Shown: in pieces, positions 516-12,342 of the stretch
How the letters are laid out: every line of letters starts with the position of its first letter
Position numbering within the stretch: position 1 is the first letter of the stretch
Assembly (NCBI GenBank): GCA_900546355.1
Contig: URCM01000074.1
Location: 1-15,496 of the forward strand
Origin: an uncultured Bacteroides sp.
Lineage (GTDB): Bacteria; Bacteroidota; Bacteroidia; Bacteroidales; Bacteroidaceae
Reading direction: 5' to 3'
DNA length: 15,496 bases
Notes under the pieces: generated by a model
What the model was told of the DNA's origin: nothing
Database searches by the model: none
What the model saw: the letters and a program-made list of their open reading frames with translations, nothing else
Program-made: the position numbers and the translations under genes

Positions 516-1823
516 TCAATCGATTTCTTCATCCGCTTCGTAACCACCCATCTCACGGATGGCATTCTTCAGCATTACATATTGCTGGAAAAGATGGTTG
601 ACCGGCACTTCATCCTGTGTATAGTCGTGCATCGGGCTTTTGAGGAAGAAGCTCAGGAAACGCTGAATGCCATAGCGTCCGGCACGTGCGGCAAGGTCGC
701 TTAACAGCACCAAGTCAAGGCAAAGAGGAGCAGCCAGGATAGAATCACGACACAAGAAGTTTATCTTAATTTGCATCGGATACCCCATCCATCCGAATAT
801 ATCAATATTGTCCCAACCTTCTTTGTTGTCATTGCGCGGCGGATAATAGTTGATGCGCACTTTATGATAGTAACCCGTATATAAATCGGGTTGCTCTTCC
901 GGCACTAAAATCGATTCCAAAGTAGAAAGTTTGCTCACTTCCTTCGTATGGAAATTAGCAGGTTCATCCAAAACCAAGCCATCGCGATTACCTAAAATAT
1001 TTGTTGAGAACCAGCCCGACAATCCCAAGCAACGGGTACCGATAATCGGCGCAAAGCCTGATTTCACCAATGTCTGCCCCGTCTTGAAATCTTTTCCCGC
1101 AATCGGCAGTTGGGTCTTTTCCGCCATCTCCCACATGGCGGGAATATCTACCGTCGTATTCGGCGCACCCATAATAAACGGCGCACCTTCGGCAAGCGCC
1201 GCGTATGCATAACACATCGAAGGAGCGATATGTTCACGGTCGTCATTTTTCATGGCTTGCTCCAATGCCGCCAACGTACCATGTACTTCCTCGCATACCG
1301 GCACATAAATTTCGGTAGAAGCTGCCCACAGCACCACCATACGGCTGCATCCGTTTGTTTCTTTAAACTCGCGGATGTCTTTACGCAAAGCCTCTACCAT
1401 CTCCCAGCGAGTAGCACAGTCTTTCACATTATCGCCATCCAAACGCTTTGCATAATTATAATCGAAAGCTGCCTTCATCGGTACAATCTTCTCTAATTCA
1501 TCTTTTACCGGATTGATGTCTTTTTCTCTCAGTACCTCACAATTCACAGCCGATTCGTATGCATTGGCAGGATATACATCCCATGCGCCGAAAACGATAT
1601 CTTTCAAGTCTGTCATCGGAACTATTTCGTTGTAATGAAGGTATTTCTTGTTAGCTCCACGCCCTACACGGATTTTATCGTATTGCGTCATCGAGCCAAC
1701 AGGTTTTGCCAACCCCTTTCTTACCATCAAAACCCCAGTTATAAACGTAGTGGCTACCGCCCCTAAACCTACACACAGCACACCTAACTTGCCTGTGGCT
1801 GGCTGAACATTCTTTTTTTCCAT
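516..1823 (-). CDS. ino1: myo-inositol-1-phosphate synthase (MIPS)
   Basis: This 435-residue protein matches the bacterial inositol-3-phosphate synthase family, which isomerises glucose 6-phosphate to 1D-myo-inositol 3-phosphate using bound NAD. The N-terminal nucleotide-binding motif is visible at about residues 18-26 (VGLGAVATT), and the central SGWFSTNILGNRDG segment corresponds to the family's conserved LGN-DG region. The length is between the archaeal/actinobacterial forms (about 360-390) and the eukaryotic ones (about 510-530). In gut Bacteroidetes this enzyme feeds inositol-lipid synthesis; the phosphatidyltransferase and phosphatase expected for that pathway are not in this window. 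The ATG at 1821-1823 follows a Bacteroidetes-type promoter, and the gene ends in its own terminator. It is divergent from a PfkB kinase gene. Confidence 0.93.
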   Translation of the reverse strand: MEKKNVQPATGKLGVLCVGLGAVATTFITGVLMVRKGLAKPVGSMTQYDKIRVGRGANKKYLHYNEIVPMTDLKDIVFGAWDVYPANAYESAVNCEVLREKDINPVKDELEKIVPMKAAFDYNYAKRLDGDNVKDCATRWEMVEALRKDIREFKETNGCSRMVVLWAASTEIYVPVCEEVHGTLAALEQAMKNDDREHIAPSMCYAYAALAEGAPFIMGAPNTTVDIPAMWEMAEKTQLPIAGKDFKTGQTLVKSGFAPIIGTRCLGLSGWFSTNILGNRDGLVLDEPANFHTKEVSKLSTLESILVPEEQPDLYTGYYHKVRINYYPPRNDNKEGWDNIDIFGWMGYPMQIKINFLCRDSILAAPLCLDLVLLSDLAARAGRYGIQRFLSFFLKSPMHDYTQDEVPVNHLFQQYVMLKNAIREMGGYEADEEID

Positions 1824-1875
1824 TTCAAATTTTGTTTTTCTGATTTCTATTTATATCATTAAGACAATGACCGCG

Positions 1876-1905
1876 TAAAGGTAGCCCTTTTATCATAATA
1901 GCAAA
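1876..1905 (-). promoter_or_regulatory. Promoter of the inositol-phosphate synthase gene
   Basis: Minus-strand TTTG (1902-1905), an 18-base spacer, then TACCTTTA (1876-1883), seven of eight matches to the Bacteroidetes TAnnTTTG -7 box. The ATG lies about 52 bases downstream. Confidence 0.5.
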
Positions 1906-2031
1906 AGTTTTCCCTGCTTTTTTAGCTCTTTATTCATAAAATGAACACTATTTCTACCAAAACAACCATATAAACAGATATTTCACCAACTGAATCAGAA
2001 AACGACGTTTCTTCCATTTAAAGAAAAATAT

Positions 2032-2039
2032 TATCTTTG
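2032..2039 (+). promoter_or_regulatory. Promoter -7 box of the PfkB kinase gene
   Basis: TATCTTTG fits TAnnTTTG exactly and ends 33 bases before the ATG at 2073. No good TTG -33 box is seen at the expected distance, so the assignment rests on the -7 box and its position. Confidence 0.5.
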
Positions 2040-2072
2040 CACCCGTTTTCCAACCGAATAACAAAATAGATA

Positions 2073-2972
2073 ATGAACGATATTTGCTGCATAGGACATA
2101 TTACACTGGATAAGATAATCACCCCTAAACAAACCGTTTATATGCCGGGAGGCACTTCTTATTATTTTTCACACGGAATCCAGCACCTGAATGACTACAC
2201 ACATTATAAATTAGTCACTTCGCTGGCTCCGAGCGAATACCAATCGGTTGACGAACTACGCGCCGAAGGCATAAACGTAGAAGTCATCCCTAGTCACCAT
2301 ACCGTGTATTTCGAAAACAAATACGAAGAAAACCAGAACAACCGTACCCAACGTGTATTGGCTAAAGCCGACCCGTTCACTGTAGAAAAGTTGAAACACC
2401 TGGAAGCCCGCTTCTTTCATTTAGGCAGTCTGCTCTCCGATGATTTTCCGCTTGAAGTTATCGAATATTTGTCTACCAAAGGTACGCTTTCGGTAGATGC
2501 ACAAGGATATTTACGGGAGGTACGTGGCGAGAACGTCTATCCGACGGACTGGAACGGAAAACAGGAAGCACTGAAATACATAGATATCTTAAAAGTGAAC
2601 GAACACGAGGCTGCTGTCCTTACCGGCTCTTCCGATTATGTCGAAGCGGTCCACTTATTGCACCAATGGGGAGTAAAAGAAGTCTTGCTGACTTTAGGAA
2701 GCGAGGGGTCTTTGATTTACGCCGAAGATACCCTGTACCGCATTCCCGCTTACCCACCTCAAGAAATAGTAGATGCTACCGGATGTGGAGACACCTATAT
2801 GCTGGGCTACTTGTATATGCGCAACAAAGAAGCATCTTATGCTGAAGCAGGTTCGTTTGCCGCGGCTTTATCCACAATCAAACTGGAAAAGTCCGGTCCC
2901 TTCAGTGGAACGGAAGAAATGGCTGCCGATATTGTAAAACATAGCCAATTAAAAGCAGAGACATTATCCTGA
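2073..2972 (+). CDS. PfkB/ribokinase-family sugar kinase, possibly an inositol kinase
   Basis: A 299-residue member of the ribokinase/PfkB fold. The N terminus holds a GH-TLDKI strand and the glycine pair PGGTSYY (25-31). The family's second signature is DATGCGDTYMLGYL (234-245), with the catalytic base Asp240 and the anion hole made by the TGCGD loop. ATP-binding strands LKVNEHEA (173-180) and LTLGSEGS (207-214) are present. The middle segment with T77, F80, Y84 and RTQRVL (91-96) resembles, from memory, the myo-inositol kinase-like branch rather than fructokinases. That and its divergent position beside inositol-phosphate synthase suggest an inositol-related substrate. This is inference; adenosine or another sugar remains possible. 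Length is normal for the family (about 300). Confidence 0.82.
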   Translation: MNDICCIGHITLDKIITPKQTVYMPGGTSYYFSHGIQHLNDYTHYKLVTSLAPSEYQSVDELRAEGINVEVIPSHHTVYFENKYEENQNNRTQRVLAKADPFTVEKLKHLEARFFHLGSLLSDDFPLEVIEYLSTKGTLSVDAQGYLREVRGENVYPTDWNGKQEALKYIDILKVNEHEAAVLTGSSDYVEAVHLLHQWGVKEVLLTLGSEGSLIYAEDTLYRIPAYPPQEIVDATGCGDTYMLGYLYMRNKEASYAEAGSFAAALSTIKLEKSGPFSGTEEMAADIVKHSQLKAETLS

Positions 2973-3051
2973 ACGACACGAATTGGCCGCTTACGAATCA
3001 GCATACAAAGACACGGAGAAAAAATATATTCACATTTTTGTCTGATAAGCA

Positions 3052-3081
3052 TTGCTTTTCCAAAAATAAACAATATATTTG
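3052..3081 (+). promoter_or_regulatory. Promoter of ndk
   Basis: TTG (3052-3054), a 19-base spacer and TATATTTG (3074-3081), an exact TAnnTTTG match. The inferred transcription start would be a few bases downstream, within or just before the leader inverted repeat. Confidence 0.65.
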
Positions 3082-3113
3082 TGGTAATTTGTAATAACCT
3101 AATAATTACCACA
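3080..3113 (+). promoter_or_regulatory. Inverted repeat in the ndk leader
   Basis: TGTGGTAATT (3080-3089) and AATTACCACA (3104-3113) are perfect 10-base inverted arms with a 14-base AT-rich spacer. The repeat starts in the last bases of the -7 box and ends two bases before the ATG. It could be a dimeric repressor site or a leader hairpin at the start codon; the sequence alone does not decide. Confidence 0.55.
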
Positions 3114-3115
3114 CT

Positions 3116-3583
3116 ATGAGTCTTGAAAAAACATTAGTCATTTTAAAGCCCAGTGCTGTACAGCGTGGGTTAATCGGAGAAATCACCACTCGTTTCGAAC
3201 GCAAAGGACTACGGCTGGCTGGAATGAAAATGATGCAACTTACCGATGAACTGTTAAACGAACACTATGCACACCTGACAGACAAACCTTTCTTCGGACG
3301 TATAAAACAATCGATGATGGCTTCACCGGTTATCGCTTGCTGCTACGAAGGGGTGGATGCAGTACAAGTAGTACGCGGCATGACCGGCGCTACCAATGGA
3401 CGCAAAGCCACTCCGGGCACAATTCGCGGTGATTACAGTATGAGCGCACAAGAAAACATCGTCCACACATCCGATTCTCCTGAAAATGCAATCATCGAGC
3501 TAAACCGTTTCTTCAAGCCTGAAGAAATATTCGATTACAAGCTCGGCACACTTCCTTTCATCAACTACGAAGGAGAAGAGTAA
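3116..3583 (+). CDS. ndk: Nucleoside diphosphate kinase
   Basis: A 155-residue protein with the complete NDK fold. It begins EKTLVILKPSAVQRGLIGEI, the universal KP-A-RG-GEI nucleotide-binding start, and carries the phosphohistidine loop ENIVHTSDS (113-121) with catalytic His117. The usual loop is NxxHGSDS; here Thr replaces the Gly after the histidine. The RGMTGATNGRKATPGTIRGD segment (87-106) supplies the phosphate-binding arginines. The enzyme transfers the gamma-phosphate of ATP to NDPs and dNDPs in the cytosol. It has its own promoter and an unusual inverted repeat just before the ATG. It stands alone, with an unrelated kinase upstream and a convergent gene downstream. Confidence 0.97.
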   Translation: MSLEKTLVILKPSAVQRGLIGEITTRFERKGLRLAGMKMMQLTDELLNEHYAHLTDKPFFGRIKQSMMASPVIACCYEGVDAVQVVRGMTGATNGRKATPGTIRGDYSMSAQENIVHTSDSPENAIIELNRFFKPEEIFDYKLGTLPFINYEGEE

Positions 3584-3598
3584 AGTTTTAAAAAACAC

Positions 3599-3668
3599 AG
3601 AGACACAAAAATACAGAAAAACCAATCTTCCAATCAATGGAAAAAGAAGTCCGTATCGTTGTGTCTCT
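3599..3668. repeat. Inverted repeat between convergent genes, possible two-way terminator
   Basis: AGAGACACAA (3599-3608) and TTGTGTCTCT (3659-3668) are perfect inverted arms about 50 bases apart, with a smaller TTCCA/TGGAA hairpin inside the loop. The pair lies between the ends of ndk (3583) and the HD-protein gene (3719). The CACAGAGACACAA wording resembles low-complexity intergenic repeats I recall from Bacteroides genomes; a similar half (ACAAAGACACGGAGAAAA) occurs at 3005-3022 after the PfkB gene. Confidence 0.45.
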
Positions 3669-3718
3669 ATGTTCACTTTCTTCTTTAAAGTCTTTTCCTA
3701 AACCGCTACCGTTGCTTA

Positions 3719-4348
3719 TCAAAGTTCGTCCAAATCACTCCCGGTACGTTCCATAATACCGGCAGCCAGACTATCTGCCACTTGTGTGATGACCACCAAC
3801 GGATAAAGCATACGGGCGGTGTCATAATTACGTAAATCTTCGTAACTGTTCTGATTAAGCCCGAATGCTCCCATATGCCAGCGGATAGCGAGCATTTCAT
3901 CGTCGCTCATCTCTAATCCATTACACAACAAGAGTATTACCGACTTCTCGCCATGTCCCATCGGAAAACTTTTATATGTCACTTTATAACCTTCGGTATC
4001 CTCCCAAACACCCAATGCATTCTTACGCTTTTTCACGCTACGCACATAAATGTCACTCTTGCATACATCGTGAAGCAAACTGGCGATAATCACACTATCC
4101 CGTCCGACTTCATTTTCTAAACCCGGCTCCAGTTTTTTCATTCCTTCCCACACAGCCAAAGCGGCTTTACACGTATTAATAGAATGTAACACCAATCCGC
4201 CTTCGGTATTCAAATGATGCCCGGCCGAGGCGGGAGCGGTAAAGAATCCCATTCCTTCCAACCCTTCTATCACATCTTCCACTCCGTCACGCCCCGTAGA
4301 ACGTAACAGTTCGATAAATTCTTCCTTGTTTTTCTTAATATCCATCAT
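3719..4348 (-). CDS. HD-domain metal-dependent hydrolase
   Basis: A 209-residue protein with the HD phosphohydrolase pattern: H44-H45, LVLHSIN with H55, the defining LLHDVCKSD with H93-D94, GHGEKS with H132, and IRWHMG with H158. Proteins of this group bind metals and cleave phosphoester bonds in nucleotides or nucleic acids; the layout (GGLVLHS, LLHD, GHG, IRWH) recalls the HD part of YhaM-type 3'-5' exonucleases, but the OB-fold of YhaM is missing. The substrate is unknown. There is no signal peptide, so it is cytosolic. It follows the dehydrogenase gene by 26 bases on the same strand and is probably co-transcribed as the last gene of the steroid-type operon. Two adjacent ATG codons (4343-4348) are both possible starts. 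Confidence 0.8.
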   Translation of the reverse strand: MMDIKKNKEEFIELLRSTGRDGVEDVIEGLEGMGFFTAPASAGHHLNTEGGLVLHSINTCKAALAVWEGMKKLEPGLENEVGRDSVIIASLLHDVCKSDIYVRSVKKRKNALGVWEDTEGYKVTYKSFPMGHGEKSVILLLCNGLEMSDDEMLAIRWHMGAFGLNQNSYEDLRNYDTARMLYPLVVITQVADSLAAGIMERTGSDLDEL

Positions 4349-4374
4349 CTATAATTTTCTAACTAATTTATGAT

Positions 4375-5232
4375 TCATGCCAACCAAGGCTTCACAATCT
4401 CCTCAGTCCGATTCCAAAGCTCTTCCATCTGTACATGATGTGTATACTTTTCCGAAAGCGGCTTGACGTGGCAACTTACATTCAGTGTACCAGTCCGCCC
4501 GCCTGCCTCCTTATCCAATAAAAGATGTATCGCAGTAGCTGCACCTTGGCGCGGCGTACGGATAAAAGGACGGAAAAGCACATCTGTCAATGGGTCGAAC
4601 CATGCATGCATCGTAATAATATCGGTCGACACAATCCCCGGATCGGCAGCATTGACTACAATTCCTTTTTCACGTACTCTACGAGCCAAATCGATGGTGA
4701 ACAGCGTCAAAGCCAGCTTCGTATTGCTATAAATGGGAATACGCCAAAACGCACCTTTCTTTCCCTGGGTAAAGAAATATGGGAAATCCAACCGTCCGAT
4801 AGCATACGTACACGACACCATATTGACGATACGGCTTCCCTCTCCCATCAGCGGCAAAAGTTTACGAGTCAACAAATAATGTCCTACATAGTTCACGCTA
4901 ACGGTACGTTCCAATCCATCTTCGGTAATATGCCTGCCCGTTTCCATCGTGCCTGCGTCATTCATCAGCAAACTGACCGGTTCACCTTCCGACAGAAGCG
5001 CATCAGCAAAAGCACCTACCGAAGCCAGCGAAGCCAAATCGAGCTCACGTATTTCCAACCTCAGGCCATCCCGCTCTTGTAACAATTTATGGCGCACTTC
5101 TTCTGCCTTGGACAAACGGCAGCTTGCCATGATGACCCGATATCCTGCCAATGCCACGGCACGGGTTATCTCAGTACCCATACCTCCATCGGCACCTGTT
5201 ATCACAGCTAATTTCGGTTTTTCTTCCATCAT
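4375..5232 (-). CDS. Short-chain dehydrogenase/reductase, candidate 3-beta-hydroxysteroid dehydrogenase
   Basis: A 285-residue classical SDR. The cofactor motif TGADGGMG is at 12-19, NDAG (usually NNAG) at 91-94, a conserved Asn at 114, Ser140, and the active site YSNTK (Tyr168, Lys172). DPGIVSTD (198-205) is typical of the retinol/steroid dehydrogenase-like branch. Arg39 after the second strand suggests NADP(H), as inference. SDRs reversibly oxidise hydroxyls to ketones; beside a 5-alpha-reductase homologue and an Old Yellow Enzyme the likely substrate is a 3-keto or 3-hydroxy steroid or bile acid. An in-frame upstream start would add 27 residues inside the previous gene and lacks the SDR beginning. 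The ATG at 5230-5232 overlaps the preceding TGA as ATGA, pointing to translational coupling. Confidence 0.85.
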   Translation of the reverse strand: MMEEKPKLAVITGADGGMGTEITRAVALAGYRVIMASCRLSKAEEVRHKLLQERDGLRLEIRELDLASLASVGAFADALLSEGEPVSLLMNDAGTMETGRHITEDGLERTVSVNYVGHYLLTRKLLPLMGEGSRIVNMVSCTYAIGRLDFPYFFTQGKKGAFWRIPIYSNTKLALTLFTIDLARRVREKGIVVNAADPGIVSTDIITMHAWFDPLTDVLFRPFIRTPRQGAATAIHLLLDKEAGGRTGTLNVSCHVKPLSEKYTHHVQMEELWNRTEEIVKPWLA

Positions 5233-6464
5233 TGCACAGCCTGCCTTTCTTCTATCTGTTCGATTTCTTTCTTCAAACAAGGCGGAAGCTCTTCTTGCAA
5301 ATGTTGGTGGCACGCCATTTCAATCGAATACATCCGGGCAATGCAATAATTGCTGTGCCGACAATTACAACGGGCTTTCTCTTCTTCACGCATCCGATTG
5401 ACAAATCCAGGCTCGTTCAACAAAGCACGCCCCATTTGCACGGCCTCAAAACCACAATCGAGCACTTCGTCTATCTTCTCACGCGATACGAGACCTCCTA
5501 CATACACCAACGGCATCTTGATTTCTTTACGGAAATTCAAAGCATCATCCAAGAAATAAGCCTCTTTAAAGGGAACGGAAGGAATCATCCATTTGCCTAC
5601 CATCCGCACTCCGTATTTCAACCACCAACAAGTCATATAATATGTCATGCTACGGATAGGCATCTCGCCACGCATTACATACATCGGTGCCTTGCTTACG
5701 AAACCTCCGCTCAACACCAACGCATGTGCCCCCGACTGCTCCAACCGTTTAGCCACCTGCAACGATTCATCCAATTCCATGCCGCCTCTGAATCCATCGC
5801 GCATATTCATCTTTACCAATACCGCCATATCGCTTCCCGCAGCTTTCATCACTTCATCCATCACCATATCCATGAACCGCATCCGGTTCGAGAGTGAACC
5901 ACCGTATGCGTCTTTCCGATGATTAGTAGACGGAGACAGGAACTGGCTGATCAAATAACCATGCCCGGCATGAATCTCCACTGCATCAAATCCCGCTTCG
6001 CGAGCCAAATTAACCGAACGTCCATAAGCACGCGCCATTTCGGGCAATTCTTCGGCACGAAGCCCGCGCACAAACGTGGGCGAATAGAGATTGAATCCGC
6101 TACTGGCACCCACAGGCAAGCAACCACAAATACTTTTATGCGACATATTTCCGCAATGACCTAACTGGATACTTGCCGCCGCACCTTCTTTATGCACCGC
6201 ATCAGTCAGTTCACGTAAGCCAGGCACTATTTCGGGACGCATCCACAACTGGCGGTCGAACGACAAGCCACTCCGTGTTACAGCAGCATATGCTACCGTC
6301 GTCATGCCCACCCCCCCCGCAGCTACCGACCGATGATAATCGAGCAGCATCTGCGAAGGCTTATTCCCCGGACACATACTCTCGAACGCAGCCGAACGAA
6401 TGGTACGATTACGCAACGTAAGTGGCCCCAATGTGACCGGAGTAAACAATTTCGAGTTTTCCAT
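5229..6464 (-). CDS. Old Yellow Enzyme-family flavin reductase, candidate steroid 5-beta-reductase
   Basis: A 411-residue NADH:flavin oxidoreductase/OYE protein. The FMN barrel begins LFTPVTLGPLTLRNR (6-20); QLGHCG (100-105), EIHAGHGYLISQFLSP (163-178) with substrate-binding His165 and His168, and GGSLSNRMRF (188-197) follow, and VGGL (322-325) and MGRALLNEP (344-352) close the phosphate site. It lacks the C-terminal FAD/NAD domain of 2,4-dienoyl-CoA reductase and BaiCD, which are about 640 residues. A Cys cluster at 366, 368, 374 and 385 lies where those enzymes bind an iron-sulfur cluster, but the spacing differs. Family members reduce activated C=C bonds; the neighbours suggest a 3-oxo-delta-4 steroid. 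Codons 49-52 contain eight consecutive G. It lies 26 bases after the 5-alpha-reductase gene. Confidence 0.88.
   Translation of the reverse strand: MENSKLFTPVTLGPLTLRNRTIRSAAFESMCPGNKPSQMLLDYHRSVAAGGVGMTTVAYAAVTRSGLSFDRQLWMRPEIVPGLRELTDAVHKEGAAASIQLGHCGNMSHKSICGCLPVGASSGFNLYSPTFVRGLRAEELPEMARAYGRSVNLAREAGFDAVEIHAGHGYLISQFLSPSTNHRKDAYGGSLSNRMRFMDMVMDEVMKAAGSDMAVLVKMNMRDGFRGGMELDESLQVAKRLEQSGAHALVLSGGFVSKAPMYVMRGEMPIRSMTYYMTCWWLKYGVRMVGKWMIPSVPFKEAYFLDDALNFRKEIKMPLVYVGGLVSREKIDEVLDCGFEAVQMGRALLNEPGFVNRMREEEKARCNCRHSNYCIARMYSIEMACHQHLQEELPPCLKKEIEQIEERQAVQ
6311..6318 (-). other. Homopolymer G8 tract inside the flavin-reductase gene
   Basis: Eight C on the plus strand read as GCG GGG GGG GTG (Ala-Gly-Gly-Val, codons 49-52) on the coding strand. 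Gain or loss of one base would truncate the enzyme early. The frame is intact in this sequence. Confidence 0.9.
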
Positions 6465-6490
6465 ATTTTAATTTTTGACAATTATACATC

Positions 6491-7267
6491 CTAATATATA
6501 AAAGGTATAATCCGTTTCCGATTCCCTACAGCCTCCACTCCAAACTCTTCGCGATACTTACGATGGATGGCATCGGCACGAGGCACTAAGTTAGCCGCCG
6601 TCCACCCTACGAACACCCATGCCGCAGGCGAAACGGTAAGTATGGCAAAACCTGTCCACTCCACCAGCTCACCGAAATAATTGGCAGACGTAACATATCG
6701 GTACATTCCTTTCTGCGGAAGATAATGCCGCGTATCGCCGGGCTTGCGCAAATGGCGTATCACATGGTCGGAATGTAAGTTTATCCCCATCCCTATGACA
6801 AACAAAGACAACCCCAGCCAAGCATGCGGCTCCAACAAATAAGCGGTGCCGATACCCGTAGGCACATTTTCGTTGAACCAAAACAGACCGCCTGCCTGCA
6901 TCACTCCATTCAACACGTTGAACACCATACCCATTGCCATAATAGCCACCGGCATACGGCTTTTGCCTTTCATCAGGAAAGGAAATACAAACGAACGTTG
7001 GAAATAATGAAAAAGAAAAAGAAAGAGGAACACGAATTGCGGCAAAGCGAACCCTGTCCCGCTGCACAACCACAAGACAAGCATCACCACAAACACAGGC
7101 GACTCCATCAGCACCCAAGCCAACTTATTATCGACAGCCCATCCCCACGAAGGGGTACGGAACATACCATATCCCGCCTTGACAAAATAAAGGGCAACAA
7201 ATACAATGAGGGCAATTCCAGCCATCACCCACAAAAATAATTGAAAAGTTTCCGAATCCATATCCAT
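6491..7267 (-). CDS. Membrane 3-oxo-5-alpha-steroid 4-dehydrogenase (SRD5A-family 5-alpha-reductase)
   Basis: A 258-residue integral membrane protein whose second half aligns closely with human SRD5A2 from memory: GMGINLHSDHVIRHLRKPG (160-178), a YRYVTSANYFGELVEWTG stretch (189-206) and the RKRIIPFIY end. The residues equivalent to human Glu57 (WVLMESPVF, E55) and Tyr91 (FHYFQRSF, Y88), which bind the steroid 3-keto group, are both kept. Six or seven hydrophobic segments are visible, consistent with the seven-helix fold. The family reduces the delta-4 double bond of 3-oxo steroids with NADPH to the 5-alpha product. A TTG at 7297 would add ten residues but lies upstream of a promoter-like box; the ATG at 7267, after AAAGGAT, is preferred, and the ATG at 7261 is also possible. 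It is the first of the three reductase genes. Confidence 0.9.
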   Translation of the reverse strand: MDMDSETFQLFLWVMAGIALIVFVALYFVKAGYGMFRTPSWGWAVDNKLAWVLMESPVFVVMLVLWLCSGTGFALPQFVFLFLFLFHYFQRSFVFPFLMKGKSRMPVAIMAMGMVFNVLNGVMQAGGLFWFNENVPTGIGTAYLLEPHAWLGLSLFVIGMGINLHSDHVIRHLRKPGDTRHYLPQKGMYRYVTSANYFGELVEWTGFAILTVSPAAWVFVGWTAANLVPRADAIHRKYREEFGVEAVGNRKRIIPFIY

Positions 7268-7283
7268 ATCCTTTAAACAGGCG

Positions 7284-7317
7284 TAAAGATACTTCAAAAC
7301 CTTGAAATAAAAACAAA
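7284..7317 (-). promoter_or_regulatory. Possible promoter of the steroid-reductase operon
   Basis: Minus-strand TTTG (7314-7317), a 22-base spacer (slightly long) and TATCTTTA (7284-7291), seven of eight matches to TAnnTTTG. It would give a very short leader before the ATG at 7267 and would let the reductase genes be transcribed apart from the serine hydrolase upstream. Confidence 0.35.
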
Positions 7318-7371
7318 TTCACAGGAAAAAGCCGATAAAAGCATAAAAAACAGCCAAAAAGCCGCTTAAAA

Positions 7372-8547
7372 TCAATCTGCCAATATCCGCATCGCAATAT
7401 CCAAATAGCGGGTCATGTCTACCGTAAAAGGACCATCGTACACATCGTGGCGTTTCCGTCCCAAACGAACCACCACAGCATCCTCGGCAGGAAGAGCATA
7501 AATATATTGTCCCAGCATCCCTCTCATACACGGGACAACCTCCCCACGATAAGGCATCAACCATACCTGCATCCCATAATAACTAAGCGAGTCTTTGCCC
7601 CACTGGTCTTTCAGATACGAAGCGGGACGCAACATTTCGTCCATGTATTTCCGCGACACTATCTGATTTCCATTCCATTCGCCCCGATGAAGCATCAACT
7701 TGCCGAAACGAGCCGCATCACGTGCTGTCGTATGGAAACAACAAAACGCTTTCTCATCACCTCCTTCCTTGTCCAACAACCAATAAGCATCCCGTTCTGC
7801 CTGCATCGGTTTCCATAACTTCTCTTCCGCATAGCCGCTCAATGTTTTCCCCGTAGCGGCTTCTAAGACAAACGCCAAAAGCTGAGTTTCACCACTGCGG
7901 TAAGAAAACCGGATGCCAGGACGCTCTTCTACCTCCAAGCCGGTCACCAATTCGTATAAGTCATTTCCGTAATAGCCGTGGGTCGTGACCGAAAAAAGCG
8001 AGGCATACGCTTCGTCCCACGCCATACCACCACTCATCGTAAGCAAATCGCGCAACGTAACATCCGCCTGCATACCTTTATTATAGCCTGGAATGTACCG
8101 CGACACCTTGTCATCCAAGCTGTGTATCTTTCCTTCATCAAGCGCCACACCCACAAGCAACCCGACAATCGTCTTTGTGGCCGAATAAAGATTTGAAGTC
8201 AACATATTGTTCCAGCCGTCCCGATAGCTTTCGAACAGGATACTATCTCCGCGAACCACCAGAAAAGCGACCGTGTGCAAACTATCCAAGTAGGCCGCGT
8301 CTTTCCCGGAAAGCTGAAAACGATTATAACCTTCCGCTTCCGCCCACCGCCATACATTGCCCACATCATGACGCACCGTGTCACGATAGAACGTCTCCAC
8401 ATCATCAATGACAGGCATCCAATGAATCAACGCCTGACGTGCGTAATAAGGCAATGAGAAATACACAACGGCAAGCAAACCCACAATGCCGAAGCCTATA
8501 CCCATCCTTTTCTTTAAAATAGCTTTCATTTCTGTTTGACGAATCAT
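7372..8547 (-). CDS. Membrane-anchored serine hydrolase of the beta-lactamase / class C penicillin-binding protein fold
   Basis: A 391-residue protein with one N-terminal hydrophobic helix (about 15-33) and no lipobox Cys, so it is probably anchored in the inner membrane facing the periplasm. The active-site motif is SATK (Ser122, Lys125), the second motif is YRS (Tyr216, Ser218), and a GMLGQYIYALP segment near residue 346 stands in the place of KTG. These are features of the EstB / 6-aminohexanoate-dimer hydrolase group rather than true AmpC. Members cleave esters, amides or D-amino acid peptides; the substrate here is unknown. It lies 104 bases upstream of the 5-alpha-reductase gene on the same strand and may share its transcript. 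A second ATG at 8529 (residue 7) is an equally plausible start. Confidence 0.83.
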   Translation of the reverse strand: MIRQTEMKAILKKRMGIGFGIVGLLAVVYFSLPYYARQALIHWMPVIDDVETFYRDTVRHDVGNVWRWAEAEGYNRFQLSGKDAAYLDSLHTVAFLVVRGDSILFESYRDGWNNMLTSNLYSATKTIVGLLVGVALDEGKIHSLDDKVSRYIPGYNKGMQADVTLRDLLTMSGGMAWDEAYASLFSVTTHGYYGNDLYELVTGLEVEERPGIRFSYRSGETQLLAFVLEAATGKTLSGYAEEKLWKPMQAERDAYWLLDKEGGDEKAFCCFHTTARDAARFGKLMLHRGEWNGNQIVSRKYMDEMLRPASYLKDQWGKDSLSYYGMQVWLMPYRGEVVPCMRGMLGQYIYALPAEDAVVVRLGRKRHDVYDGPFTVDMTRYLDIAMRILAD

Positions 8548-8606
8548 TTAAAGCGATATACCCAAGCGACCCTTTTACCGCATCCCGCAAATAGTTCGCT
8601 TACCGC

Positions 8607-8637
8607 TTGCAAGATATAAATAAAATCCATACCTTAG
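8607..8637 (+). promoter_or_regulatory. Promoter of the small membrane-protein gene
   Basis: TTG (8607-8609), a 20-base spacer and TACCTTAG (8630-8637), one mismatch to TAnnTTTG, ending 19 bases before the ATG at 8657. Confidence 0.5.
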
Positions 8638-8656
8638 GCCGATTTTTAACAAAAAC

Positions 8657-8956
8657 ATGAATCTTATGTGGACAACTATCAAATTTTTCATATTCGCGGC
8701 AATATATATTATAGGTATGGTCAGTGCAGCCAGAACCAACACCGTATGGACGGGCGACCTAAGTTACCGAATCATCCACCTGCTGCTCTTTATCACCGGT
8801 ATGATTGTTTTAATCAGCCTTCCCAAAATCAAGACGGCACAAACAAACACATGGAATAAAATAGCCCGCTGGTGCTTCGGTTTCGCTTGTTTGGTTTATG
8901 TCCTCACCTATCTCTCGGCCGTTTTCGTCCATGACTTGCCTCTACTTGTCAAGTAA
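8657..8956 (+). CDS. Small three-helix membrane protein of unknown function
   Basis: A 99-residue protein with three predicted membrane segments: about 6-24 (TIKFFIFAAIYIIGMVSA), 40-55 (IIHLLLFITGMIVLIS) and 72-92 (CFGFACLVYVLTYLSAVFV). The loops are short and basic (KIKTAQTNTWNKIAR). I do not recognise a family. It is likely to be real: it has its own promoter-like sequence, it is the only open frame in the gap between two minus-strand genes, and its composition is that of a membrane protein. It is convergent with nth, 69 bases away. Confidence 0.65.
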   Translation: MNLMWTTIKFFIFAAIYIIGMVSAARTNTVWTGDLSYRIIHLLLFITGMIVLISLPKIKTAQTNTWNKIARWCFGFACLVYVLTYLSAVFVHDLPLLVK

Positions 8957-9025
8957 AAACACCATTATGAACGGCATTTAGGATGGCAATGCACCGGAGA
9001 TTCTTTGCAAACCGATTCCGTCCTA

Positions 9026-9664
9026 CTACAAAATGACAGCTGCCTTGCAGATACCGTTCAGCCCGCACTCGGCGCATTTGGGATTACGTGCCGTGCAGAC
9101 GTACCTGCCGTGTAGAATGAGCCAATGGTGAGCTTTCGGGATAAGTGACTCGGGGATGTACTTCACCAATTCACGCTCGGTAGCAAGAGGCGTGGTGCAA
9201 GAAGCGGGAACCAAGCCGATGCGGTGGCTTACACGGAACACGTGGGTATCGACCGCCATTGTCGCTTTATGGAACACCACACTCTGCACGACATTTGCCG
9301 TTTTCCGTCCCACACCGGGAAGCTTCACCAGTTCTTCGAGTGTGTCGGGCACCTGTCCTCCATAATCACGTACCAGCATTTGCGCCGTACCTACGAGGTG
9401 ACGTGCCTTGTTGTTGGGATAGCTCACGCTCCGGATGTATTCGTAAACCACATCGGAAGTGGTGGCAGCCATAGCTTCTGCCGTAGGAAAATCACGGAAC
9501 AATGCCGGAGTAATCATATTGACCCGCTTGTCGGTGCATTGTGCGCTTAAGATAACGGCTACAAGCAACTGGAAAGGGTCTTCGTAATGCAATTCGGTTT
9601 CTGCCACGGGCATCGCCTGCTCGAAATAAGCGATTACCCGGTCGTAAAGTTCTTTTTTTCTCAT
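9026..9664 (-). CDS. nth: Endonuclease III, DNA glycosylase/AP lyase
   Basis: A 212-residue HhH-GPD glycosylase. It removes oxidised pyrimidines from DNA and nicks the abasic site. The helix-hairpin-helix LPGVGRKTANVV carries the catalytic Lys, and VDTHVFRV carries the catalytic Asp. The C terminus holds the iron-sulfur ligands in the exact C-x6-C-x2-C-x5-C spacing (CTARNPKCAECGLNGIC). The length equals that of E. coli Nth (211). The frame is open 34 codons further upstream, into the end of corA, but that extension has no resemblance to Nth; the ATG at 9662-9664 gives the standard start. The gene follows corA by 64 bases with no clear promoter between, so co-transcription is likely. Confidence 0.95.
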   Translation of the reverse strand: MRKKELYDRVIAYFEQAMPVAETELHYEDPFQLLVAVILSAQCTDKRVNMITPALFRDFPTAEAMAATTSDVVYEYIRSVSYPNNKARHLVGTAQMLVRDYGGQVPDTLEELVKLPGVGRKTANVVQSVVFHKATMAVDTHVFRVSHRIGLVPASCTTPLATERELVKYIPESLIPKAHHWLILHGRYVCTARNPKCAECGLNGICKAAVIL

Positions 9665-9728
9665 TTTTCTTTCGTTCCCATTTTTATATAAAAAGTGCCG
9701 TTGAGGCAAATCGCAATCTCTCCGGCTT

Positions 9729-10769
9729 TTAATACCATTTCTTCCGCTTAAAGTACACGCATACACCGATGGCGATGAGCAACATCAGTCCCCAAGCATA
9801 GAGGTATCCGTATTTCCAGTCCAGTTCGGGCATGACGCGGAAGTTCATCCCCCAGATGCCGGCGAGAAAAGTCAGCGGAATAAAGATGGTAGACACCACG
9901 GTGAGCTGGCGCATGATGTTGTTCATGTGCCGGTCGTTGCTGGAAAGAATCATATCGACCAGCGCACCGAGCAGGTCACGGCATCCTTCCAATGTTTGCA
10001 GGACAAATTGCAGGTGGTCGTTTACATCGTTGAAGAAGGGGCGGCTCGCCTTATGCAGCAACCGGGTATCTTCAGGATGAAGAAGTTTGGCGATTTGTTC
10101 TTTCAGCGGGAAGATGCATTTCTTTATCAGGCGATAATTACGCCGGAACACGTGCAGGTCGCCGATTGTTGGGTCCATCACACCGGGCGTGAGCAAGCGC
10201 TCTTCCAAGTCTTCCAGCTTGTCTTCCATATCCGAAATGATGGACATGAAACTGGTCATCACACTATTCAGAATCACGCTCAGCAGAAAGTCTGACGAGC
10301 GGGTACGGATTTTCAACACGTCATTTTCTATCGCCGTATAGATTTCATCGAAAAAATCGGTATCGTTTTCCGTAAAAGTGAGCAGGTAATCTTCGCCTTG
10401 CACCAGGCAAAGCTGCTGGGGAAGATATTCGTCCTCACCTGTAGCGGAAAGCAGTTTCAGGATTACGACATTATAGTCTTCGTGTGCTTCAATCTTGGTG
10501 AGATGAAGCGAATTGAGAATATCCTGCTCGGTAAGGAACCCAATGCCGAAATGCCGGCATACCTTCTGTATTTCTTCCGTATCCTTCAGCCCATGTATCT
10601 GAATCCAGTGCATGGAGCCCGCCTTGAAATAAGGCAATATGTCTTCTATGGTGTCACCGTCTTGGTTTTCCGCTCCGGCTGGTCCATACGTACACAAGTG
10701 CAGGTGCGTCGGGGTCTTGCTTCCTCCGATATAGTTCAGTTCTTCCGTCAAAAGATTGTTCTTTGCCAT
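9729..10769 (-). CDS. corA: CorA-family magnesium/cobalt transporter
   Basis: A 346-residue CorA-type channel. A long cytosolic N-terminal domain (about 1-280) rich in acidic residues ends in the pore helix, with the family signature GMN at 307-309 (LAGIWGMNFRVMPEL) and two membrane helices at about 292-309 and 321-341, followed by a basic tail KRKKWY. The loop has MPEL where many members have MPEL or MPE, matching the Mg2+ selectivity region. These proteins form pentamers in the inner membrane and take up Mg2+ (or Co2+/Ni2+). The gene is divergent from the queuosine operon, with overlapping promoter regions, and nth follows it. Confidence 0.95.
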   Translation of the reverse strand: MAKNNLLTEELNYIGGSKTPTHLHLCTYGPAGAENQDGDTIEDILPYFKAGSMHWIQIHGLKDTEEIQKVCRHFGIGFLTEQDILNSLHLTKIEAHEDYNVVILKLLSATGEDEYLPQQLCLVQGEDYLLTFTENDTDFFDEIYTAIENDVLKIRTRSSDFLLSVILNSVMTSFMSIISDMEDKLEDLEERLLTPGVMDPTIGDLHVFRRNYRLIKKCIFPLKEQIAKLLHPEDTRLLHKASRPFFNDVNDHLQFVLQTLEGCRDLLGALVDMILSSNDRHMNNIMRQLTVVSTIFIPLTFLAGIWGMNFRVMPELDWKYGYLYAWGLMLLIAIGVCVYFKRKKWY

Positions 10770-10791
10770 AATCTTGCCTATAGAAAGTGTA

Positions 10792-10822
10792 CAAATATAG
10801 GGTTTTCTTGCTAATCCGACAA
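10792..10822 (-). promoter_or_regulatory. Promoter of corA
   Basis: Minus-strand TTG (10820-10822), a 20-base spacer and TATATTTG (10792-10799), an exact TAnnTTTG match. It ends 22 bases before the corA ATG and interleaves with the divergent promoter at 10808-10838. Confidence 0.7.
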
Positions 10823-10838
10823 ATTATCCGTAACTTTG
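10808..10838 (+). promoter_or_regulatory. Promoter of the queuosine-precursor operon
   Basis: TTG (10808-10810), a 20-base spacer and TAACTTTG (10831-10838), an exact TAnnTTTG match. The leader to the ATG at 10920 would be roughly 75 bases. Confidence 0.7.
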
Positions 10839-10857
10839 CGCCCGATAAAAAGATGAG

Positions 10858-10879
10858 GATGTTTCTTTGCCGGAACATC
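10858..10879 (+). promoter_or_regulatory. Leader hairpin upstream of the riboswitch candidate
   Basis: GATGTTTC (10858-10865) pairs with GGAACATC (10872-10879), with one G-U pair and a six-base loop. AAGATG (10850-10855) could instead pair with CATCTT (10876-10881), so two alternative stems exist. Confidence 0.4.
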
Positions 10880-10882
10880 TTC

Positions 10883-10917
10883 CGTGTATTCTAGGACAAC
10901 CACGTAAAAAACAGGAG
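10883..10917 (+). promoter_or_regulatory. Candidate preQ1-I riboswitch
   Basis: The order of elements matches the preQ1 class I aptamer: a short P1 stem (CGTG 10883-10886 with CACG 10901-10904), a loop containing TTCTAG, a C (10900) directly before the 3' P1 strand where the ligand-pairing cytosine sits, then an A-rich strand TAAAAAAC and a purine-rich tail AGGAG (10913-10917) just before the ATG. Loop CUAG against tail CAGG would give a weak P2 (G-C, A-A, U-G, C-G); UUCU with AGGA is an alternative. Binding would hide the AGGAG ribosome site. The P1 is only four base pairs, which weakens the case. The downstream genes carry and make preQ1-pathway compounds, which supports it. Confidence 0.5.
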
Positions 10918-10919
10918 CG

Positions 10920-11606
10920 ATGAAAAAAGAAAATCTCGTATCGGTGCCTTTTATGGTTTTGGGCATCGTGTTTTGTGTATGCCTCGTAGCGGCAAACCTA
11001 TTAGAAACCAAAGTCATCCAAATGGGTCCCGTGGCGGTTACGGCAGGCCTGATTGTATTTCCCATATCTTACATTATCAACGATTGCATTGCCGAAGTAT
11101 GGGGCTTCCGCAAAGCGCGTCTCATCATTTGGATGGGATTTCTTATGAATTTTATGGCCGTTGGCTTGGGACAGCTAGCCGTGGCATTGCCCGCCGCTCC
11201 ATTCTGGGAAGGTGAAGAAGGGTTCAACTTCGTGTTCGGCATGGCTCCCCGCATCGCCATCGCCAGCCTGCTGGCATTTCTGGCAGGGTCATTCATCAAC
11301 GCCTACGTAATGAGCCGCATGAAACTGGCTTCACAGGGAAAACATTTTTCGGCACGCGCTATCCTTTCTACGGTATTCGGCGAAAGTGCCGACTCGCTCA
11401 TATTTTTCCCCCTGGCATTCGGAGGACTGATGCCAATAGAAGAGTTAGGCAAAATGATGCTGGTACAAGTCATACTGAAAACCGCGTATGAAATCGTCGT
11501 ACTCCCTGTCACCATCCGCGTCGTGCGTTACATCAAGCACATCGACGGGTCGGACGCCTACGATGCAGGCATCTCCTACAACATCTTGAAGATTAAAGAA
11601 ATCTGA
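10920..11606 (+). CDS. yhhQ: Queuosine-precursor transporter (YhhQ/QPTR family)
   Basis: A 228-residue membrane protein of the DUF165/YhhQ family, which imports preQ0 or preQ1 for queuosine synthesis. The family motif is visible as VFPISYIINDCIAEVWGFRKAR (46-67), followed by the conserved GESADSLIFFPLAFGG (153-168) in the second half. Six hydrophobic segments can be seen: about 9-27, 37-54, 69-90, 107-127, 156-172 and 179-198. The start is preceded by AGGAG five bases upstream, unusually strong for this phylum and part of the candidate riboswitch. It is first in an operon with queC and queF, which fits the assignment. Confidence 0.92.
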   Translation: MKKENLVSVPFMVLGIVFCVCLVAANLLETKVIQMGPVAVTAGLIVFPISYIINDCIAEVWGFRKARLIIWMGFLMNFMAVGLGQLAVALPAAPFWEGEEGFNFVFGMAPRIAIASLLAFLAGSFINAYVMSRMKLASQGKHFSARAILSTVFGESADSLIFFPLAFGGLMPIEELGKMMLVQVILKTAYEIVVLPVTIRVVRYIKHIDGSDAYDAGISYNILKIKEI

Positions 11607-11664
11607 TTTTACCAATCGACATGCCTCTTTTTTATATTGGGCATAATCATAAAAATACCATACA

Positions 11665-12342
11665 ATGAATAAAGACAAAGCATTAGTCGTATTCAGTGGC
11701 GGACAAGACTCTACCACTTGCCTGTTTTGGGCAAAAAAACATTTTAAAGAAGTGTATGCACTCAGTTTCCTCTACGGACAAAAGCACATCAAGGAAGTAG
11801 ACCTGGCACGCGAAATCGCCCGCAAAGCCGAAGTGCATTTCGACACAATGGATGTATCGTTCATCGGACATCTGGGAAAAAATTCACTTACAGATACATC
11901 CATCCAGATGGATGAAACAAAACCGAAGGAAACTTACCCCAATACATTCGTCCCGGGACGCAACCTGTTCTTTCTAAGCATTGCAGCCGTATATGCACGC
12001 GAACATGGCATCTACCACCTCGTAACCGGTGTATCACAAACCGATTTCAGCGGATACCCCGATTGCCGTGACACTTTTATCCGCTCGCTCAACGTTACCT
12101 TGAACCTTGCCATGGACGAGCAATTTGTCATCCACACTCCACTGATGTGGATAGACAAGGCCGAAACTTGGGCACTGGCAGACGAACTGGGAGTGCTCGA
12201 CCTGGTACGTCACGAAACCCTGACGTGTTATAACGGAATCCCAGGAGACGGATGCGGGCATTGTCCTGCCTGCAAATTGCGCCGCGAAGGACTGGAAAAA
12301 TACCTGAATAGTAAACAGTGTGATAAACACATTAGCGAATAA
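11665..12342 (+). CDS. queC: 7-cyano-7-deazaguanine (preQ0) synthase
   Basis: A 225-residue QueC. It converts 7-carboxy-7-deazaguanine to preQ0 with ATP and ammonia, in the cytosol. The PP-loop SGGQDS is at 11-16, and the zinc-binding cysteines are C188, C197, C200 and C203 in the block [19 protein letters not shown]. The [13 protein letters not shown] (94-106) and [12 protein letters not shown] (127-138) motifs are also typical of QueC. It is 58 bases after the transporter gene and five bases before queF, so the three are probably one operon. The other pathway enzymes (FolE, QueD, QueE) are not in this window. Confidence 0.97.

What the first reader, a model, noticed from the sequence alone, without database searches (positions are those of the whole stretch)
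4375..7267. Steroid / bile-acid reduction cluster: SRD5A-type 5-alpha-reductase, Old Yellow Enzyme and SDR in one operon
Three genes in a row, with a 26-base gap and then an ATGA overlap, encode two unrelated reductase folds and one dehydrogenase suited to 3-oxo-delta-4 steroids. A 5-alpha-reductase and a flavin reductase would give opposite C5 stereochemistry, and the SDR would interconvert the 3-keto and 3-hydroxy forms. As I recall, this gene set matches the 5AR-5BR-3-beta-HSDH clusters linked to isoallolithocholic acid in gut Bacteroidetes. The protein families and layout are seen in the sequence; the substrate and stereochemistry are inferred.
Basis: partly seen in the sequence, partly recalled or inferred. 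Interest (0 to 1): 0.85.

Follow-up and report, generated by a model that had tools for sequence, protein, structure and literature searches.

The report
Gut-bacterial steroid ring-flipping operon
Three neighbouring bacterial genes match a gene cluster already linked to making flat bile acids in gut bacteria; the cluster itself is known, but two of its enzymes have unusual active-site and metal-binding features worth testing.

Summary
In detail: 5AR (6491-7267, PF02544), OYE (5229-6464, PF00724) and SDR (4375-5232) lie on the minus strand with a 26-base gap, then an ATGA overlap. The triad is conserved (uninterrupted in 68 of 80 loci), and in 393 Bacteroidales genomes 62 of 65 with OYE also carry 5AR, some unlinked. 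Details seen in no passage I read: (1) the QEY steroid-binding motif reads MEY in all 175 Bacteroidota 5AR sequences aligned; (2) 5AR splits into an OYE-linked clade and an unlinked one, told apart by the residue at an NADPH-contacting His; (3) OYE is an FMN barrel plus an Fe-S-type segment with three invariant cysteines but no NAD(P)H/FAD module, so its electron partner is unclear. Most likely function: turning 5beta-3-oxo or delta-4 bile acids into 5alpha-3beta-hydroxy "iso-allo" forms. Substrate, direction and stereochemistry are inferred. New member of a known kind.

The parts
6491..7267 (-). 5AR: SRD5A-type membrane 3-oxo-5alpha-steroid 4-dehydrogenase/reductase, 258 aa
   Evidence: PF02544 1.5e-35; PDB 7c83 PbSRD5A 8.9e-47 and 7bw1 human SRD5A2 1.3e-36
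7103..7108 (-). Codons for M54-E55 of 5AR: 'MEY' in place of the QEY signature (Y88 at 7004-7006)
   Evidence: alignment to 7c83/7bw1; M,E,Y in 175 of 175 aligned sequences, 170 distinct over their last 200 residues; QEY described in PMC7815742
6566..6568 (-). Codon for I234 of 5AR, aligned with NADPH-contacting H231 of SRD5A2 (H230 of PbSRD5A)
   Evidence: alignment; aliphatic (I/L/V) in 129 of 175, H/N/Y/S in 46 of 175, an exact split on the tree
5229..6464 (-). OYE: single-barrel FMN ene-reductase/dehydrogenase with C-terminal Fe-S-type segment, 411 aa; putative 5beta-reductase/5beta-dehydrogenase (5BR)
   Evidence: PF00724 1.8e-53; AF2 pLDDT 92.5; structural matches 6qkg, 2tmd, 1ps9 whose aligned range reaches residue 409
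5955..5972 (-). OYE active-site motif H165-A-G-H168-G-Y170 (enone-binding His pair and Tyr, role recalled from YqjM)
   Evidence: H165, H168, Y170 invariant in 236 of 236 sequences aligned; aligned to YqjM
5310..5369 (-). Candidate Fe-S segment of OYE: C366-N-C368-x5-C374-x10-C385
   Evidence: C368, C374, C385 invariant in 236 of 236; C366 in 210 of 236; position 371 never Cys
4375..5232 (-). SDR: short-chain dehydrogenase, putative 3beta-hydroxysteroid dehydrogenase, 285 aa
   Evidence: PF00106 1.6e-27 (on the longer frame); S140, Y168, K172 conserved in at least 97% of 74 aligned
7284..7317 (-). Promoter-like site TTTG-N22-TATCTTTA just upstream of 5AR (one mismatch to the recalled Bacteroidales consensus)
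   Evidence: sequence; exact TTTG-N17-23-TAnnTTTG within 150 bases upstream of 5AR in 12 of 79 relatives, shuffled mean 0.37, 0 of 77 upstream of OYE
7372..8547 (-). Upstream serine hydrolase (beta-lactamase fold), adjacent but probably not part of the system
   Evidence: PF00144; next to 5AR in only 3 of 80 loci; orthologues more than 8 kb from 5AR in two related genomes
3719..4348 (-). HD-domain protein 26 bases after SDR; may be co-transcribed; not conserved with the triad
   Evidence: HD domain 0.00034, 21.3 bits against a cut-off of 22; beside the triad only in L001 and L002 of 80 loci

Best explanation
The three genes form an operon that resets the A/B ring junction and the 3-hydroxyl of bile-acid-type steroids. 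OYE interconverts 5beta-3-oxo and 3-oxo-delta-4 steroids (5beta-reductase in one direction, 5beta-dehydrogenase in the other). The membrane 5AR adds hydride from NADPH to C5 on the alpha face of the delta-4 ketone, giving a flat 5alpha-3-oxo steroid. The SDR reduces the 3-ketone to a 3beta-hydroxyl, giving iso-allo products such as isoalloLCA or isoalloDCA. Shown here: families, order, conservation, catalytic residues, co-occurrence. Inferred: substrate, direction of OYE, stereochemistry, cofactor, 3beta rather than 3alpha product.
For: Families and conserved layout. A review describes the same three-gene cluster in Bacteroidota, with 5AR disruption in P. merdae preventing alloLCA derivatives (PMC10382948 passage), and another paper describes the indirect pathway 3alpha-HSDH + 5BR, then 5AR + 3beta-HSDH (PMC9645264 passages). 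E55/Y88 and seven of the eight NADPH residues listed for SRD5A2 are kept in the window (list in PMC7815742). OYE keeps the His-His-Tyr motif in 236 of 236. 5AR and OYE co-occur: of 393 Bacteroidales genomes 90 have 5AR, 65 OYE, 62 both, Fisher 3.7e-46; in 5AR clade B, where the genes are unlinked, 16 of 43 genomes have OYE against 3 of 303 without 5AR, 1.4e-13 (relatedness not corrected).
Against: No assay and no direct comparison with the published P. merdae proteins. Two residues reported as important in SRD5A are changed: Q56 to M (Q56A/L inactivates human SRD5A2, PMC7815742) and H231 to I (H231A is tolerated in that paper). OYE falls far below the BaiCD model (183.8 against 825 bits) and lacks the NAD(P)H/FAD module. 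None of the 60 listed (of 295) solved relatives of the SDR is named a hydroxysteroid dehydrogenase. Fifteen deeper relatives carry two SDRs, so the window SDR need not be 3beta-specific. 27 of 43 clade B genomes have 5AR without OYE, so 5AR can serve without it. The window's host is unknown.
Confidence: 0.75

Rival explanations
1. Same chemistry, but the main natural substrates are steroid hormones, cholestenone or other neutral sterols rather than bile acids.
For: The bacterial SRD5A homologue PbSRD5A reduces progesterone (PMC7815742 passages); clostridial OYE-type reductases act on hormones (PMC12238238, abstract and section 9).
Against: The Bacteroidota cluster has been tied genetically to bile acids (review passage). 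Neighbouring genes do not decide it: only some were annotated, and none of those is a sterol side-chain enzyme.
Confidence: 0.2
2. OYE works only as a reductase, so the operon simply disposes of 3-oxo-delta-4 steroids made by other gut bacteria to either 5beta or 5alpha products; it does not flip 5beta bile acids.
For: OYE enzymes are usually reductases (recalled); a review reports P. [quoted passage not shown]
Against: A review states that several strains convert 3-oxoLCA or isoLCA (5beta) to isoalloLCA, which needs oxidation at C4-C5.
Confidence: 0.2
3. The serine hydrolase at 7372-8547 belongs to the system and adds or removes a 3-O-acyl group on the bile acid, like 3-succinyl-cholic acid synthase.
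For: Adjacent, same strand, best NCBIfam hit is 3-succinylated cholic acid synthase, 5.9e-30.
Against: 104 bits against a cut-off of 800; in G003 (genome of L014) a true member lies on another contig than 5AR; its own orthologues (72-75%) are not within 8 kb of 5AR in the genomes of L003 and L057; adjacent in 3 of 80 loci; a promoter-like site lies between it and 5AR.
Confidence: 0.05
4. The triad acts on a non-steroid enone and the steroid reading is only family resemblance.
For: PF02544 and PF00724 are broad families (recalled); the Q of QEY is lost.
Against: E/Y pair and most of the NADPH site kept; bile-acid phenotype of the cluster in P. merdae (review passage).
Confidence: 0.05

Closest known systems
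Bacteroidota 5AR-5BR-3beta-HSDH cluster (Honda and colleagues, as described in PMC10382948, passage seen)
   Same: Same three enzyme families clustered; found here in gut Bacteroidales, including P. vulgatus (L060).
   Different: Published proteins not available for alignment; activity of this copy untested.
SRD5A family (human SRD5A2 7bw1, PbSRD5A 7c83)
   Same: PF02544 by sequence, catalytic E and Y, NADPH residues N, D, R, N, E, R, Y.
   Different: QEY reads MEY; an NADPH-contacting His is Ile.
2,4-dienoyl-CoA reductase / 2-naphthoyl-CoA reductase / trimethylamine dehydrogenase class (1ps9, 6qkg, 2tmd)
   Same: FMN barrel plus the following segment, which in that class carries the Fe-S cluster (recalled); aligned range of the model reaches residue 409.
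   Different: Only three invariant cysteines, and no C-terminal FAD/NAD(P)H domains.
YqjM-type single-domain OYE (1z41, 3gr7)
   Different: About 45 extra C-terminal residues with conserved cysteines.
Clostridial 5beta-reductase ci2350 and BaiCD (PMC12238238, abstract and section 9)
   Same: OYE-superfamily enzymes acting on delta-4 3-ketosteroids.
   Different: Far below the BaiCD cut-off; the positions matching ci2350 N166 and S171, by simple offset from the catalytic Tyr and without an alignment, are G169 and Q174 here.
BaiP/BaiJ bile-acid 5alpha-reductases of Firmicutes (PMC9645264, passages)
   Same: Same product class, allo bile acids.
   Different: The paper's abstract says they differ from the membrane-associated Bacteroidetes enzymes.

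Membership tests
SRD5A / PF02544 | Match to the family model over its cut-off | tested here: met
   122.9 bits against 22.6, residues 104-258
SRD5A / PF02544 | Catalytic Glu and Tyr (E57, Y91 of SRD5A2) | tested here: met
   E55, Y88; 175 of 175 aligned sequences
SRD5A / PF02544 | Full QEY signature reported by PMC7815742 | tested here: not met
   M54 replaces Q in the window and in 175 of 175 aligned Bacteroidota sequences. Filed therefore as a PF02544 homologue of MEY type, not as a canonical QEY SRD5A.
SRD5A / PF02544 | Eight NADPH residues listed for SRD5A2 | tested here: not met
   Seven of eight present; H231 is I234. H231A keeps activity in the same paper.
Bacteroidota 5AR-5BR-3beta-HSDH cluster | Three families clustered together | tested here: met
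   against the review description
Bacteroidota 5AR-5BR-3beta-HSDH cluster | Orthology with the P. merdae genes whose disruption was reported | not tested
   primary papers not held; no named P. merdae entry in the best 120. Nearest proxy: an uncultured Parabacteroides triad, L076.
Bacteroidota 5AR-5BR-3beta-HSDH cluster | Conversion of 3-oxo-delta-4-LCA to isoalloLCA | not testable with these tools
   needs an assay
BaiCD | NF041087 score over 825 bits (profile of 642 positions) | tested here: not met
   183.8 bits, protein of 411 aa
2,4-dienoyl-CoA reductase class | Fe-S cluster segment after the barrel | tested here: inconclusive
   aligned range with 6qkg, 2tmd, 1ps9 reaches residue 409; three, not four, invariant Cys; metals not modelled; sequence search with the C-terminal piece found no relative of this class
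2,4-dienoyl-CoA reductase class | C-terminal FAD/NAD(P)H module | tested here: not met
   411 aa; the longest of the 236 aligned is 446 aa
Bilirubin reductase BilR | NF045592 score over 425 bits | tested here: not met
   133.4 bits
Mycofactocin OYE 2 (TIGR03997) | score over 793.15 bits | tested here: not met
   194.8 bits
3-succinylated cholic acid synthase (upstream hydrolase) | NF045925 score over 800 bits | tested here: not met
   104.2 bits
SDR superfamily | Glycine-rich TGxxxGxG and Ser/Tyr/Lys catalytic residues | tested here: met
   T12-G13-A14-D15-G16, M18-G19, S140, Y168, K172 conserved in at least 97% of 74
3beta-hydroxysteroid dehydrogenase | 3beta stereospecific activity | not testable with these tools
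   needs an assay

The most novel reading that the evidence does not exclude
The Bacteroidales 5BR is an OYE with a new electrical layout: an FMN barrel plus a three-cysteine Fe-S cluster that lacks one canonical ligand and has lost the NAD(P)H/FAD module, so it trades electrons with a separate carrier. That would let it run as a 5beta-dehydrogenase under anaerobic conditions and feed an MEY-type 5alpha-reductase with a modified substrate/cofactor site, together making a ring-flipping unit for A/B-cis to A/B-trans steroids. The link between the two is strong enough to show in genomes where the genes lie apart.
Probability: 0.25. Interest if true: 0.6.

Novelty: new member of a known kind. Interest (0 to 1): 0.35.

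Why it matters
IsoalloLCA is reported to inhibit C. difficile and to induce regulatory T cells (review passages), so knowing which genomes carry a complete unit matters for predicting who makes it. The comparison gives sequence markers (Ile/Leu/Val at 234; adjacent OYE) that separate OYE-linked 5AR from other Bacteroidales SRD5A homologues, which a PF02544 match alone does not do. The missing electron-supply domain of OYE turns the direction of the 5beta step into a concrete biochemical question.

Tried and rejected
Rejected: serine hydrolase 7372-8547 as a bile-acid acyltransferase of the 3-succinyl-CA synthase kind. Rejected: OYE as BaiCD, BilR or mycofactocin OYE 2. Considered: inserted genes in Prevotella-type loci as extra steroid enzymes; the one copy of each that I annotated is a protein with an AraC-type HTH and a histidine kinase core (between OYE and SDR) and a protein with only weak REP-transposase similarity, below its cut-off (between 5AR and OYE). 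I had expected Q-to-M to mark the OYE-linked clade; one search showed it in both clades, and position 234 separates them.

Led nowhere: Rfam scan of the window, no hit at gathering threshold; exact Bacteroidales promoter scan of the window found no site upstream of 5AR (the site listed has one mismatch); a search with the OYE C-terminal piece against solved structures gave nothing useful, best E 0.13, so the Fe-S reading rests on the structural match, on conserved cysteines and on cysteine spacings of 1ps9 and 2tmd recalled from memory. Search for a named P. merdae 5AR: none named. Paper search for chicken plus 5AR plus Bacteroidetes: 0 papers. Rows left out: clade B fragments in G437 and G527 were not fetched; the 17 weak PF02544 genomes (E above 1e-30) were not aligned; OYE hits covering under 85% of the query were left out. 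BaiCD and ci2350 do not appear in the structural list, which excludes nothing.
Full report
What is there. On the minus strand the window holds 5AR (6491-7267), OYE (5229-6464) and SDR (4375-5232), separated by 26 bases and then an ATGA overlap. Pfam assigns Steroid_dh, Oxidored_FMN and adh_short. 5AR matches the solved bacterial PbSRD5A (7c83, 8.9e-47) and human SRD5A2 (7bw1, 1.3e-36). All three frames are intact and, against L001, L002 and L004, dN/dS is 0.02-0.13.

Conservation of the unit. A scan of one genome per species with a 5AR alignment kept the best 80 of 188 loci. OYE follows 5AR on the same strand within 400 bases in 74 of 80; in three more an insert of about 1.26 kb lies between; three have no OYE in the DNA held (in two the contig ends soon after 5AR). 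SDR follows OYE within 90 bases in 68 of the 73 loci where all three were found, and in all 68 OYE is also within 400 bases of 5AR; five carry inserts of 2.2-4.6 kb; four loci have OYE without an SDR found. Named species with the triad include Phocaeicola vulgatus ATCC 8482, P. plebeius, P. coprocola, P. massiliensis, Bacteroides finegoldii, B. clarus, B. gallinarum and B. fluxus. A Bacteroidales-type promoter motif (consensus recalled) lies within 150 bases upstream of 5AR in 12 of 79 loci (mean of 200 mononucleotide shuffles 0.37, largest 2) and in none of 77 upstream of OYE; the 12 include close relatives and one identical pair (L007, L009). This fits one transcript starting at 5AR. The window has the same site with one mismatch at 7284-7317.

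Wider survey. In 395 Bacteroidota genomes PF02544 rings in 25, 8 of them strongly (E below 1e-30). In 393 genomes of the order, 90 carry a 5AR-like gene. I fetched 94 loci from these two surveys and aligned 175 sequences (94 + 80 + window), 170 distinct over their last 200 residues. They fall into two clades, an exact split on the tree with support 1.0: clade A (129) has Ile/Leu/Val at window position 234, clade B (46) has His/Asn/Tyr/Ser. OYE is adjacent (same strand, within 3 kb) in 116 of 129 of clade A and 0 of 46 of clade B; in the order sample alone 39 of 48 and 0 of 41. The first 80 loci were found with clade-A motifs, so the order sample is the fairer count. Co-occurrence goes beyond adjacency: of 393 genomes, 90 have 5AR, 65 have OYE and 62 have both (Fisher 3.7e-46); 46 of 47 clade A genomes and 16 of 43 clade B genomes have OYE, against 3 of 303 genomes without 5AR. 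Shared ancestry was not corrected for, so these P values overstate the case, and 27 of 43 clade B genomes have 5AR without OYE.

Anatomy of 5AR. The catalytic Glu and Tyr (E57 and Y91 of SRD5A2) are E55 and Y88. The third member of the published QEY signature is Met in all 175 sequences, although PMC7815742 (passages and section 8) calls QEY highly conserved in all 5alpha-reductases it studied and finds Q56A/L inactive in human SRD5A2. An NADPH-contacting His is Ile; H231A is tolerated in the same paper. The chemistry expected is alpha-face hydride transfer to C5 (PMC7815742 passages; PMC7591894 passages). I saw no mention of MEY in the passages read; the paper searches give titles and abstract starts only and miss most subscription journals, so this is not proof that it is unreported.

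SDR. It has the glycine-rich motif and Ser/Tyr/Lys residues. Fifteen of 48 order-sample clade A loci carry two SDRs in a row after OYE, which would fit a 3alpha/3beta pair; in 14 of the 15 the second SDR is the one closer to the window SDR (35-44% identity), in L115 it has no match to it.

Mechanism. The best reading is the published indirect pathway: 5beta bile acids are oxidised to 3-oxo-delta-4 by 3alpha-HSDH and 5BR, then reduced by 5AR and 3beta-HSDH to iso-allo acids (PMC9645264 passages; PMC10382948 passage). The step from family to substrate rests on those papers, on synteny and on active-site residues; nothing here shows activity.

Not part of it. The serine hydrolase upstream and the HD protein downstream lie beside the triad only in close relatives, 3 and 2 of 80 loci.

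Verdict.

Noticed in passing
L141:4989-5972:+ and 23 further clade B loci: In 24 of 46 clade B loci an extended SDR lies directly upstream of SRD5A on the same strand; the one copy annotated (L141) matches PF01073 3Beta_HSD and, weakly, SdmB. A different, OYE-free 3beta-HSD plus 5AR pair in other Bacteroidales.
   Followed up: partly
15 loci between L095 and L121: Four-gene form 5AR-OYE-SDR1-SDR2 with two different SDRs in a row.
   Followed up: partly
L051:10046-12328:+ and relatives in L046, L047, L058, L063, L075: In Prevotella-type loci a protein with AraC-type HTH followed by a histidine kinase core (L051 copy annotated) sits after OYE, in one or two copies; possible dedicated sensor.
   Followed up: partly
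L040:3189-4415:+, also L050 and L054: A roughly 400-540-aa open frame splits 5AR from OYE; the L040 copy has no Pfam match and weak REP-associated transposase similarity.
   Followed up: no
window 516-12342 against L002: dS is 0.55-0.88 from the inositol-phosphate synthase gene through OYE but 0.93-1.45 from 5AR to queC, which may mark a recombination breakpoint between OYE and 5AR.
   Followed up: no
window 7372-8547: Serine hydrolase next to 5AR in three related genomes, with distant similarity to 3-succinylated cholic acid synthase.
   Followed up: yes
window 516-1823: Myo-inositol-1-phosphate synthase gene (PF07994, PF01658), kept near the triad in L001 and L002.
   Followed up: no
window 8657-8956: Small 99-aa protein with no Pfam or NCBIfam match, kept in L001 and L002 (62% and 82%).
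   Followed up: no
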